Of a DNA stretch of 64,000 bases, positions 28,071 to 29,212 are shown in pieces. The translations under genes and the position numbers were made by a program. The notes beneath the pieces are model-generated. The model searched no databases and was not told where the DNA came from. It was given only the letters and a program-made list of their open reading frames with translations. The DNA lies in NCBI RefSeq assembly GCF_001279725.1, contig NZ_LGDE01000304.1, forward strand, positions 17,417 to 81,416, given 5' to 3'. The first letter of the stretch is position 1; the number at the start of each line of letters is the position of its first letter. Origin of the DNA: Streptomyces sp. WM4235. Lineage in GTDB: Bacteria; Actinomycetota; Actinomycetes; Streptomycetales; Streptomycetaceae.

Positions 28071-28091
28071 TCGGGGCCGGGCACACGTGAC

Positions 28092-28124
28092 GGAGCCCGG
28101 GAGCATATCCAGCTCCCGGGCTCC
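28092..28124. terminator. Bidirectional terminator hairpin
   Basis: The perfect 13-bp stem GGAGCCCGGGAGC with its inverted copy surrounds a 7-base loop. It sits between the plus-strand anti-sigma gene and the minus-strand tRNA-like/DUF7873 unit and can terminate both. Confidence 0.85.
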
Positions 28125-28150
28125 TGCTTGCCACCCATTTGCGCACACCG

Positions 28151-28168
28151 GCGGCTTTTAAGGGCCGC
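28151..28168 (-). terminator. Small hairpin after the second permuted tRNA-like element
   Basis: GCGGC and GCCGC pair around an 8-base loop containing TTTTAA. It immediately follows the outer helix of element 2 and may end or process the tRNA-like transcript. Confidence 0.4.
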
Positions 28169-28169
28169 G

Positions 28170-28269
28170 GATCATTTTGAGATCGACGTGTTCTGCCTTT
28201 GAACTACAGCGCCGCGGCAGAGGCGCCGGGGGGACTTGAACCCCCATCCGTCGATGATCGCCCGCGCCC
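28170..28269 (-). tRNA. Circularly permuted tRNA-like gene, element 2
   Basis: Read on the minus strand, the 3' half comes first. Anticodon 3' stem CGACG (28253-28249), a 3-base variable loop, T stem GGGGG, T loop TTCAAGT, CCCCC, then acceptor CGGCGCC (28228-28222) and T73. Eight bases on, the 5' half starts: acceptor GGCGCTG (28213-28207), T8, A9, D arm GTTC-AAAGGCA-GAAC, anticodon 5' stem CGTCG (28188-28184). The acceptor pairs 7/7 with one G-T, and CGTCG pairs 5/5 with CGACG. Beyond an 8-base loop beginning ATCTCAA, ATGATC (28175-28170) pairs with GATCAT (28259-28254), closing the precursor. With T33 the anticodon would read CTC (uncertain). The 3-base variable loop is short. No CCA is encoded. 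Confidence 0.75.
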
Positions 28270-28296
28270 GGTCGATCCGGTGTTCGGCGGCGAATA

Positions 28297-28429
28297 CTGA
28301 GACTGGAGCGAGAATCTGAGATTCATGGGGCCGCCTCTACCGGCTTGGGCCACCCCCGCACGTGGTGCGGGGAGAGGGATTCGAACCCCCATCTGACACC
28401 CCGTGTTCAGCTTCGACATTCAGTTTCAG
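28297..28429 (-). tRNA. Circularly permuted tRNA-like gene, element 1
   Basis: On the minus strand: anticodon 3' stem GGGGT (28402-28398), 7-base variable loop, T stem GGGGG, T loop TTCGAAT, CCCTC, acceptor TCCCCGC (28373-28367), A73 and encoded CCA (28365-28363). After CGT the 5' half begins: acceptor GCGGGGG (28359-28353), T8, G9, D arm GCC...GGC with GG in its loop, anticodon 5' stem GCCCC (28331-28327) and a 7-base loop ATGAATC. The acceptor strands pair 7/7 (one G-T) and the anticodon stem 5/5 (one G-T). The outer ends pair further: TCAG (28319-28316) with CTGA (28410-28407), and CAGTCTCAG (28305-28297) with CTGAAACTG (28429-28421) with one mismatch. With T33 the anticodon would be GAA (uncertain). 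Confidence 0.78.
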
Positions 28430-28432
28430 CTT

Positions 28433-28498
28433 GCGCTCTTCAGCGCACCCCCTCGCTCGCACGGGGGGGCGTTGTGGAGGCTACCTGAAGAGGTAGCC
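28433..28498 (-). other. Three hairpins linking the DUF7873-like stop codon to permuted tRNA element 1
   Basis: GGCTACCT-CTTC-AGGTAGCC (28479-28498, minus-strand reading) is a perfect 8-bp stem that contains the stop codon. Next comes a CCCCC/GGGGG stem (28448-28467), then GCGCT-GAAG-AGCGC (28433-28446), a perfect 5-bp stem. They could be processing signals or an attenuator between the coding region and the tRNA-like RNAs. No T tract is present. Confidence 0.55.
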
Positions 28499-29212
28499 GA
28501 ACACCGCGTCGCCGACCCGCTGGTCGGTGACGTCGGCGCTGTTGGCCTCCTCGCGGGCGAACTTGACCGCCTGCTGGATCTTCTCGACCCGGTCGAGGAG
28601 CTCGTTCACGCGCCGCGCGGGCAGGGCTCCGGAGAACTTCACGGTGGTCCAGTAGCCGACCGGCACGTCCTCGTAGTACACCTCGACCTGCGCCGGGTGC
28701 TTCTCCGTGGCCTCGGCCTTCACGTGGTTGCGCGGGACCTTCTTCGTACGGATGGTGCGCACGGGGTCCGTCTTCCAGGAGTCCGTCGAGGGGTCCAGGT
28801 TCCAGGCCTCCGACGCGTCCAGCACGGGGAGCTTGCGCACGAAGGTGTGCAGGTCCGTGAGTTGCTTCTCCAGGAACAGCAGGTACGGGACGGGGACCTG
28901 GGGCAGCAGGACCTGGCCGTCGACGACGACGTCCGCCGCCGCGGTGCGGTTCGCCCAGTCCTTGGTCGCCGTCACGTCGAACAGTCGCGTGAGGGTACCG
29001 GCGGTCGCGCGCAGCACGTCCTCGGCCTTGAGCTGGACCCGGGTGGATTCCGGGGGCAGTTGCTCGCCCTCTTCGTCCTTGGGCTGGTACGTCCGCGAGA
29101 TGCCGGCCATCAAGGCGGGCTTCTGGACGTCCTGGTGGGCTTGCGTCAGTTCCTGGAGCGACTTGGACTTGACGCCCTTTTCCACGGCGATTATCTGATT
29201 CAGCTTCGGCAC
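28481..29212 (-). CDS. DUF7873-like conserved hypothetical protein, upstream of permuted tRNA-like genes
   Basis: 243 residues from a GTG at 29210-29212. It resembles proteins labelled DUF7873 in actinobacteria and their phages; recognition is moderate. The protein is soluble, rich in Lys/Glu/Asp, with helical N-terminal ('VEKGVKSKSLQELTQAHQDV') and C-terminal segments and a central part with 'VPVPYLLFLEKQLTDLHTF'. It has no cysteine, no signal peptide and no visible nuclease or ligase motif. Its codon composition is less extreme in GC than its neighbours. The stop codon lies inside a hairpin and two permuted tRNA-like genes follow within 52 bases on the same strand, suggesting co-transcription and a tRNA-related function (inference). 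Confidence 0.65.
   Translation of the reverse strand: MPKLNQIIAVEKGVKSKSLQELTQAHQDVQKPALMAGISRTYQPKDEEGEQLPPESTRVQLKAEDVLRATAGTLTRLFDVTATKDWANRTAAADVVVDGQVLLPQVPVPYLLFLEKQLTDLHTFVRKLPVLDASEAWNLDPSTDSWKTDPVRTIRTKKVPRNHVKAEATEKHPAQVEVYYEDVPVGYWTTVKFSGALPARRVNELLDRVEKIQQAVKFAREEANSADVTDQRVGDAVFGYLFR

What the first reader, a model, noticed from the sequence alone, without database searches (positions are those of the whole stretch)
28297..28429. Circularly permuted tRNA-like gene in a bacterial chromosome (element 1)
The 3' half of a tRNA (anticodon 3' stem, T arm with TTCGAAT, acceptor TCCCCGC, A73, CCA) precedes, after only three bases, the 5' half (acceptor GCGGGGG, T8, D arm, anticodon 5' stem GCCCC). 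The acceptor strands pair across the linker and the anticodon stem pairs between the outer ends. Extra helices (TCAG with CTGA; CAGTCTCAG with CTGAAACTG) extend beyond the 7-base anticodon loop, as in precursors that need cutting and ligation. Permuted tRNA genes are known to me from red and green algae and archaea, not bacteria. A working RNA would need an endonuclease, a ligase and RNase P/Z at the linker.
Basis: partly seen in the sequence, partly recalled or inferred. Interest (0 to 1): 0.95.

Follow-up and report, generated by a model that had tools for sequence, protein, structure and literature searches.

The report
Twin tRNA-mimic RNA with protein partner
Beside a gene of unknown function (DUF7873), Streptomyces bacteria and many phages carry a pair of RNA modules predicted to fold like transfer RNAs with their halves in swapped order; they are probably not tRNA genes but the RNA half of a new, Ro-independent relative of the bacterial Y-RNA particle, which likely handles or protects cellular RNA.

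Summary
Element 1 (minus strand, about 28446-28305) and a second permuted element (28284-28145) form one tandem unit directly 3' of a DUF7873 gene (29212-28481). A permuted-element detector found one or two elements downstream of DUF7873 in 181 of 193 loci (145 with two), against 6 of 193 upstream and 1 of 193 on the opposite strand. They occur in Streptomyces relatives, actinophages, a cyanophage and Klebsiella jumbo phages. Acceptor stems are kept by compensatory changes. In 200 Streptomycetaceae genomes DUF7873 and the full-length element-2 RNA occur in the same 116. Re-ordered, both elements of all 146 two-element loci pass a tRNA finder for some cut (30 and 21 of 146 when partly shuffled), but the would-be anticodon is not conserved. 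The architecture matches bacterial Y RNA (YrlA). Both elements miss Rfam's YrlA cut-off, DUF7873 shows no sequence similarity to Ro, and the window's genome has no Ro match. Best reading: a Ro-independent, DUF7873-associated twin Y-like RNA. Binding of DUF7873 and the function are inferred.

The parts
28481..29212 (-). DUF7873 protein gene (243 aa, GTG start), likely partner protein
   Evidence: Pfam PF25283 E 8.5e-120; no TROVE match; AlphaFold2 model pLDDT 94.5, pTM 0.70
28305..28446 (-). Element 1 domain: first permuted tRNA-like module with its extended stem (the finding)
   Evidence: Homologues aligned in A4, pair counts; partial R1 match 28414-28311, 33.6 bits
28374..28390 (-). Element 1 T arm (5 bp, loop TTCGAAT)
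   Evidence: Sequence; pairs in 100% of cells of 40 homologues
28353..28373 (-). Element 1 acceptor stem: 3' strand 28373-28367, linker ACCACGT, 5' strand 28359-28353
   Evidence: Sequence; 98.9% of cells paired, all 7 pairs with double-side changes
28333..28352 (-). Element 1 T8 and D arm
   Evidence: Sequence; 3 pairs counted, 100% of cells paired
28434..28438 (-). Element 1 distal helix, 5' strand GAGCG
   Evidence: Pairs with 28310-28306 CGCTC; 73% of cells, own-flank test
28306..28310 (-). Element 1 distal helix, 3' strand CGCTC (within conserved TCTCGCTCC)
28403..28432 (-). 5' arm of element 1: hexamer-periodic tract (AAGCTGAAACTGAA...)
   Evidence: Lag-6 self-match 0.464 (94 Streptomyces-like loci) and 0.406 (71 divergent loci) against 0.247 and 0.255 when shuffled
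28145..28284 (-). Element 2 domain: second permuted tRNA-like module on a bipartite basal stem
   Evidence: Model R1 133.2 bits, E 1.2e-32 (this locus is in the training set); structure counts
28222..28245 (-). Element 2 T arm (28245-28229) and acceptor 3' strand (28228-28222)
   Evidence: Sequence; T 100%, acceptor 99.6% of cells paired in 32 homologues
28190..28213 (-). Element 2 acceptor 5' strand (28213-28207), T8 and D arm
   Evidence: Sequence; D stem 84.4% of cells paired
28270..28282 (-). Element 2 outer basal helix 5' strand (28282-28277) and conserved internal-loop strand AUCGACC (28276-28270)
   Evidence: Outer helix 99.0% of cells, all 6 pairs with double-side changes; covariation
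28146..28161 (-). Element 2 internal-loop strand UUAAAAGCCG (28161-28152) and outer basal helix 3' strand (28151-28146)
28262..28269 (-). Element 2 inner basal helix, 5' strand (partner about 28169-28162)
   Evidence: 88.9% of cells paired, all 8 pairs with double-side changes; this locus has one bulged base on the 3' strand
28092..28124 (-). Strong hairpin just 3' of element 2, likely end of the RNA (shared with the convergent gene)
   Evidence: Fold -36.7 kcal/mol over 28085-28135, z -5.68

Best explanation
The element is one half of a tandem pair of circularly permuted tRNA-like modules encoded beside DUF7873, and it is likely a non-coding RNA that works with the DUF7873 protein as a Ro-independent, Y-RNA-type ribonucleoprotein rather than a tRNA gene. 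Shown here: the tandem architecture, its covariation, and its near one-to-one occurrence with DUF7873. Inferred: the basal stems (the AUCGA/UUAAA internal loop of element 2 and the hexamer-periodic arm of element 1) hold DUF7873, as the basal stem of bacterial Y RNA holds Ro. Inferred: the two tRNA-like heads are displayed to tRNA-recognising proteins (modification enzymes, a nuclease such as PNPase, or tRNA-cleaving defence enzymes). Inferred: the particle thereby tethers or decoys RNA-processing enzymes, in RNA quality control in the bacteria and probably in protecting tRNA or translation in the phages.
For: Downstream of DUF7873, 181 of 193 loci carry at least one permuted element (145 carry two); upstream 6 of 193, opposite strand 1 of 193 (loci not de-duplicated). 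Element 2: 34 of 36 pairs with double-side changes, 248 such cells against 79.8 shuffled, 87.9% paired against 39-47% in slid controls. Element 1. The strongest covarying column pairs are T, acceptor and D stems and two long basal helices. Model R1 full length in 80 of 80 genome-contig loci; in 26 of 26 relatives' loci, 25 full length and one cut by a contig end; at 45 bits or more in 70 of 80 viral loci. In 200 family genomes DUF7873 is found in 116 and full-length R1 in the same 116 (Fisher 1.4e-58). Genomes G547 and G026 have two DUF7873 genes and two RNAs, one beside each; G450 has a DUF7873 fragment with a weak RNA beside it. The best Rfam family for both elements is YrlA, whose consensus has the same order: outer helix, internal loop, inner helix, short stem, T arm, acceptor, D arm. 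No TROVE match in the window's genome or in 8 of the 25 DUF7873-bearing genomes of 41.
Against: No binding, expression or phenotype data. DUF7873 is not basic (pI 6.5) and its model matches no known RNA-binding fold (inconclusive). Co-occurrence and position 3' of the gene also fit a cis-regulatory 3' UTR. G553 has a second, divergent DUF7873 match without an R1 match. Of 80 viral loci ten are below 45 bits: four score 30-40 (L138, L139, L140, L190), L183 scores 21, L125, L126 and L148 have nothing above 13.6, and L182 and L185 hold almost no DNA downstream. The Microcoleus phage (L006) gives only 24.8 bits 2 kb away. The most distant phages (Klebsiella L007/L194/L195, Rhizobium L196, Vibrio L197) match R1 only in part (21-32 bits), though permuted elements are visible in L007, L196 and L197.
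Confidence: 0.65

Rival explanations
1. It is a genuine circularly permuted tRNA gene whose transcript is cut and ligated to a mature decoding tRNA, as in some algae and archaea.
For: Right order of halves; re-ordered element 1 is called tRNA-Phe(gaa). In 146 of 146 two-element loci each element gives a tRNA call for at least one of 100 cuts; with the D/anticodon parts shuffled only 30 (element 1) and 21 (element 2) of 146 do. CCA follows position 73 of element 1 in 68 of 145 loci.
Against: Would-be anticodon not conserved: 22 classes in 94 close homologues at one cut, commonest 33 of 94. CCA follows in element 2 in only 17 of 145. Conserved sequence lies in the extended stems, which would be discarded. 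Tied to DUF7873.
Confidence: 0.04
2. It is an ordinary YrlA-type Y RNA that uses a Ro protein.
For: Same architecture; best Rfam family YrlA, 29.7 bits (E 1.4e-4 in a 401-base search; 7.6e-3 in a 21-kb search) and 23.2 bits (E 0.011). Ro-linked Y RNAs of Streptomyces also come as tandem permuted pairs (L222, L227) and also miss Rfam's cut-off.
Against: No TROVE match in this genome nor in 8 of 25 DUF7873-bearing genomes. Model R1 separates the two kinds: in nine loci centred on TROVE genes or on YrlA hits of relatives (L218-L225, L227) it gives at most 50.8 bits, over the tRNA-like core only, and 33.5-35.0 bits where the match is full length, against about 50-142 bits at DUF7873-linked bacterial loci.
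Confidence: 0.08
3. The RNA is a cis-acting 3' UTR of the DUF7873 mRNA, e.g. an autoregulatory site that DUF7873 binds to control its own expression or stability.
For: Usually just 3' of the gene on the same strand; strong terminator-like hairpin after it.
Against: In viral locus L168 the RNA is inverted, 1.2 kb away, and in L170 it lies upstream of the gene, so cis position is not strictly kept. Two elaborate tRNA mimics are more than a binding site needs (judgement).
Confidence: 0.12
4. A protein-RNA toxin-antitoxin or anti-defence module: DUF7873 is a toxin or effector held by the RNA, or the pair is a tRNA decoy against anticodon nucleases.
For: Scattered presence (116 of 200 family genomes), 73 phage records, not in a fixed chromosomal context (window neighbours found in 8-12 of 80 loci); 47 of 89 phage and viral loci have a tRNA gene within about 3 kb (no background computed). 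The decoy idea was raised as a possibility for YrlA in PMC7790460 (passages).
Against: No PADLOC match for three family members at E up to 0.1; no known toxin fold found; RNA lies 3' of the gene.
Confidence: 0.11

Closest known systems
YrlA, bacterial Y RNA (Rfam RF02553; structure PDB 6CU1)
   Same: Circularly permuted tRNA-like head (T arm, acceptor, D arm) on a basal stem made by the 5' and 3' ends with an internal loop (alignment; PMC8394870 and PMC11472068, passages)
   Different: Gathering score missed (29.7 and 23.2 against 69); different internal loop (AUCGA/UUAAA); two modules in one tandem of nearly fixed spacing; partner gene DUF7873 instead of Ro/Rsr; occurs in genomes without a TROVE match
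Ro-linked Y RNA pairs of Streptomyces (L222, L227)
   Same: Tandem permuted tRNA-like elements beside one protein gene
   Different: Upstream of a TROVE gene; another basal-stem sequence; low R1 scores
Circularly permuted tRNA genes of algae and archaea (recalled)
   Same: 3' half encoded before 5' half, acceptor strands pair across a short linker
   Different: Here no conserved anticodon; long conserved extensions; protein partner gene
tmRNA and permuted tmRNA (RF04321)
   Same: tRNA-like domain, permuted order in some
   Different: Below threshold (12.5 bits against 47 for RF04321); a D arm with covarying pairs; a tag reading frame was not looked for

Membership tests
Bacterial Y RNA (YrlA) | Permuted tRNA-like module (T arm, acceptor, D arm in that order) | tested here: met
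Bacterial Y RNA (YrlA) | Basal stem of 5' and 3' ends interrupted by a conserved internal loop | tested here: met
   Element 2: outer and inner helices, all 14 pairs with double-side changes; loop AUCGA/UUAAA conserved. Element 1: only moderate support
Bacterial Y RNA (YrlA) | Score above Rfam RF02553 gathering threshold (69 bits) | tested here: not met
   29.7 and 23.2 bits; none of 41 genomes reaches it, Ro-linked copies included
Bacterial Y RNA (YrlA) | Gene linked to a Ro/Rsr (TROVE) protein, which binds the RNA | tested here: not met
   No TROVE match in the genome; neighbour is DUF7873. Binding itself not testable
Bacterial Y RNA (YrlA) | Head docks PNPase or is modified by TruB/DusA | not testable with these tools
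   Reported for YrlA in PMC8394870 (passages)
Ro/TROVE protein (for DUF7873) | TROVE domain by sequence | tested here: not met
   Pfam on 8 family members lists no TROVE at E up to 1 (filters drop most matches above 0.1); hhalign with one Streptomyces Ro, probability 0.2 of 100
Ro/TROVE protein (for DUF7873) | Ro-like fold | tested here: inconclusive
Permuted tRNA gene | 3' half before 5' half, acceptor strands pairing | tested here: met
Permuted tRNA gene | Conserved anticodon and identity among homologues | tested here: not met
   22 classes in 94 homologues at one cut, commonest 33
Permuted tRNA gene | Ligated mature tRNA | not testable with these tools
   Needs RNA sequencing
Conventional tRNA gene | Found in native order by a tRNA finder | tested here: not met
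   ARAGORN 0 genes in the window and on both native elements

The most novel reading that the evidence does not exclude
A new class of ribonucleoprotein: DUF7873, a protein with no detected relative of known function, assembles on a twin tRNA-mimic RNA whose stem carries a hexamer-periodic tract. It serves as a Ro-free Y-RNA-like particle that both Streptomyces and large phages use to tether or decoy tRNA-handling enzymes.
Probability: 0.45. Interest if true: 0.88.

Novelty: new variant of a known kind. Interest (0 to 1): 0.77.

Why it matters
Bacterial Y RNAs have been described with their partner Ro. Here a protein family with no detectable sequence relation to Ro and of unknown function (DUF7873; 7,576 relatives in a search that scored only 7,999 candidates) is tied almost one-to-one to an RNA of the same architecture. 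That gives DUF7873 a testable function and suggests that permuted tRNA mimics have been adopted by more than one protein system. Its presence in phages, in about half of the loci near tRNA genes (47 of 89), makes a role in the contest over tRNA and translation directly testable. It also shows that a permuted tRNA look in a bacterial genome need not mean a permuted tRNA gene.

Tried and rejected
Artefact of tandem tRNA genes: rejected. Two adjacent tRNA-Asn genes of this genome do give a partial match (36.6 bits to model R1, 44.5 bits to YrlA), because the 3' half of one precedes the 5' half of the next. But ARAGORN finds no tRNA here, and in the 41 and 200 genomes searched high-scoring full-length matches, basal helices included, lie only beside DUF7873.

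Single-sequence folding as proof: not useful. Element 1 is not more stable than shuffles.

Global RNAalifold of the tandem was spoiled by alignment of the variable 5' arm; replaced by segment-wise covariation and pair counts (67, 105). In the Streptomyces-only set (effective number about 10) most high-ranking pairs outside T and acceptor stems look like noise.

Known fold for DUF7873: Foldseek PDB, BFVD and VIA-align gave nothing convincing (BFVD best E 8.5e-4 with TM 0.21). Sequence search of PDB: best E 1.5. PHROGs and PADLOC: no match for the members tried.

Sigma-70 promoter scan: none found. A TAnnnT box between DUF7873 and element 1 in 73 of 185 loci was not tested further; no promoter is claimed.

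DUF7873 and TROVE neither exclude nor require each other: 17 both, 8 DUF7873 only, 9 TROVE only, 7 neither of 41 (Fisher P 0.52).

Literature: full-text searches for 'DUF7873' (0 papers), YrlA with Y RNA, Streptomyces and tRNA-like, permuted tRNA in bacteria, YrlA and Y RNA, Y RNA and phage and Streptomyces small RNAs showed no description of this RNA in the listings. This is an open-licence library only. Related prior work seen in passages: TROVE with a tRNA-like partner in jumbo phages (PMC7824862) and a suggested Rsr/Y RNA pair in a Listeria phage (PMC12282133). The original YrlA papers and reviews and Burroughs 2016 are not held, so what I say of them rests on papers citing them or on recall.

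Full report
What is there. On the minus strand, just 3' of a gene for a 243-aa DUF7873 protein (29212-28481; PF25283 E 8.5e-120), lie two RNA elements of one plan. Each begins with an extended 5' arm. Then come the 3' strand of an anticodon-like stem, a T arm, the 3' acceptor strand, a linker of 7-8 nt, the 5' acceptor strand, T8, a D arm and the 5' strand of the anticodon-like stem. Element 1 is the reported finding; element 2 follows at 28284-28145. A strong hairpin (28124-28092; z -5.68 for the folded stretch) ends the unit. ARAGORN sees no tRNA in the window.

Is it more than chance? Alone, element 1 is not: its fold is no better than shuffles (z -0.50; z -0.95; element 2 z -2.24). Comparison decides. 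I gathered loci with DUF7873 homologues: phage records, whole genomes of relatives, GTDB genome contigs (best 80 of 547) and IMG/VR contigs (best 80 of 312). A detector for permuted elements (T arm, 7-nt acceptor strand, linker, complementary 7-nt strand, T8, GG in the D loop) found two elements downstream in 145 of 193 loci, one in 36 and none in 12. The upstream control gave 6 of 193 and the opposite strand 1 of 193. The loci include near-duplicates. The distance from acceptor 1 to T arm 2 is 110-121 nt in 134 of 145 loci.

Structure. For element 2, in 32 aligned homologues, 34 of 36 pairs show changes on both sides, with 248 such cells against 79.8 in shuffles. 87.9% of cells pair, against 39-47% when strands are slid. 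The weakest helix is the anticodon-like stem (53.4% of cells). Mutual-information analysis over 133 loci (effective number about 40) ranks the T, acceptor and D stems and two basal helices at the top. The basal stem is bipartite: an outer helix, an internal loop with a well-conserved AUCGA opposite UUAAA, and an inner helix. For element 1, in 40 homologues, the T, acceptor and D stems pair in 100, 98.9 and 100% of cells, and a distal helix GAGCG/CGCTC in 73%. Twenty-one loci whose distal motif departs from consensus match their own 5' flank better on average (7.86) than other flanks (6.11) or shuffled ones (5.09), though several have no good partner. The 5' arm of element 1 repeats with a 6-nt period (self-match 0.464 in Streptomyces-like and 0.406 in divergent loci, about 0.25 shuffled).

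Tie to DUF7873. A covariance model of element 2 (R1) matches full length in 80 of 80 genome-contig loci (93.9-142.5 bits). It matches in 26 of 26 relatives' loci (25 full length, one cut by a contig end). It reaches 45 bits or more in 70 of 80 viral loci. Of the other ten, four score 30-40 bits (L138, L139, L140, L190), one scores 21 (L183), three have nothing above 13.6 bits (L125, L126, L148) and two hold almost no DNA downstream (L182, L185). Some of these sequences trained the model. In 41 relatives, high-scoring full-length matches occur in 24 of the 25 genomes with DUF7873 (the 25th is cut by a contig end), beside the gene. Of the 16 genomes without DUF7873, 10 give partial matches and 6 none. 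Two low full-length matches (35.0 and 33.5 bits, in G012 and G038) lie at YrlA-type loci elsewhere in DUF7873-bearing genomes. In 200 Streptomycetaceae genomes DUF7873 occurs in 116 and the full-length RNA in the same 116 (Fisher 1.4e-58). The one further match (G476, 53.4 bits) covers only the tRNA-like core. G547 has two DUF7873 genes and two RNAs, one beside each; G450 has a DUF7873 fragment with a weak RNA beside it; G553 has a second, divergent DUF7873 match without an RNA match. In viral locus L168 the RNA is inverted and in L170 it lies upstream, so the tie is to the gene, not to one exact position.

Is it a tRNA gene? In all 146 two-element loci both elements give a tRNA call for at least one of 100 cuts. 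When the D and anticodon parts are shuffled and T arm and acceptor kept, only 30 (element 1) and 21 (element 2) of 146 do, so the tRNA-like fold is real. CCA follows position 73 in element 1 in 68 of 145 loci and in element 2 in 17 of 145. The extended stems, which a tRNA would discard, carry conserved sequence. A decoding tRNA is therefore unlikely.

What it resembles. The best Rfam family for both elements is YrlA, the bacterial Y RNA: 29.7 bits for element 2 (E 1.4e-4 in a 401-base search, 7.6e-3 in a 21-kb search) and 23.2 for element 1 (E 0.011), below the gathering score of 69 (no match at gathering scores in the window). The published Y RNA is a tRNA-like domain on a basal stem that holds Ro, with the head docking PNPase (PMC8394870, passages). 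Its crystal structure superposes on tRNA with a circular permutation (PMC11472068, passages). TROVE proteins with a tRNA-like partner have been noted in some jumbo phages (PMC7824862, passages), and a Ro/Y RNA pair was suggested in a Listeria phage (PMC12282133, passages). Streptomyces relatives also carry Ro-linked Y RNAs, again as tandem permuted pairs upstream of a TROVE gene (L222, L227). Model R1 separates these: at most 50.8 bits, over the core only, and 33.5-35.0 bits where the match is full length. The window's genome has no TROVE match, nor do 8 of the 25 DUF7873-bearing genomes, itself included. DUF7873 shows no similarity to TROVE and its confident model (pLDDT 94.5, pTM 0.70) matches no known fold convincingly. 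I therefore do not file it as YrlA: it is built like a Y RNA and likely works like one, with another protein.

Mechanism. Shown: architecture, covariation, near-strict co-occurrence. Inferred: DUF7873 binds the basal stems, and the two heads are offered to enzymes that recognise the tRNA elbow and acceptor, as tether or decoy. In the phages, 47 of 89 loci have at least one tRNA gene within about 3 kb (277 tRNAs in 565 kb; no general phage background was computed), which suits a role around tRNA. A decoy role was raised as a possibility for YrlA in Salmonella (PMC7790460, passages). Rivals are a cis-acting 3' UTR, a toxin-antitoxin or anti-defence module, a Ro-bound Y RNA, and a permuted tRNA gene.

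Limits. No expression or binding data. E-values from R1 are rough (short calibration). DUF7873 is not basic (pI 6.5). The most distant phages match R1 only in part (21-32 bits). A draw of 396 genomes from the phylum found DUF7873 in 7, all of one genus, while relatives of another family of the order have it, so the bacterial range is patchy. The literature search covers open-licence papers only.

Noticed in passing
L226 (G000:C113, two tRNA-Asn genes at 220-293 and 298-371 of the locus): Tandem identical tRNA genes imitate a permuted tRNA (3' half of one before 5' half of the next) and give partial matches to YrlA (44.5 bits) and to R1 (36.6 bits): a false-positive source and a possible evolutionary origin of permuted tRNA-like RNAs.
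   Followed up: partly
L222 1260-1603 and L227 53-377 (minus): Ro (TROVE)-linked Y RNAs of Streptomyces also come as tandem permuted pairs upstream of the Ro gene; in 41 genomes no match reaches Rfam's YrlA cut-off.
   Followed up: partly
L224 1501-1619 and L225 1501-1606: YrlA-type matches (50.4 and 50.0 bits) on contigs where no TROVE match was listed; their partner, if any, was not looked for.
   Followed up: no
L141 3001-3720: Viral DUF7873 gene with an in-frame stop near its start; recoding, error or decay. Left as it is.
   Followed up: no
L076 (AP026074.1): The DUF7873-RNA pair also lies on a 1.07 Mb plasmid (SNP1) of Streptomyces nigrescens HEK616, so it can travel between replicons.
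   Followed up: no
L002 1072-1600: Gordonia phage Phendrix carries an apparent tmRNA (Rfam 89 bits) in the same tRNA cluster as its DUF7873 pair; not among the listed annotated features.
   Followed up: no
L003 4374-5246: A band-7-like membrane protein gene lies beside the DUF7873-RNA pair in Rhodococcus phage NiceHouse.
   Followed up: no
L196 4051-4159 and L197 3961-4049: Rhizobium and Vibrio phages with distant DUF7873 seem to have one clear permuted element, and an AAACTC-type hexamer tract before it; the first element is degenerate or absent.
   Followed up: partly
control genome Deinobacterium chartae: The only one of 14 control genomes with DUF7873 is also the only one with TROVE; whether the genes are linked there was not checked.
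   Followed up: no
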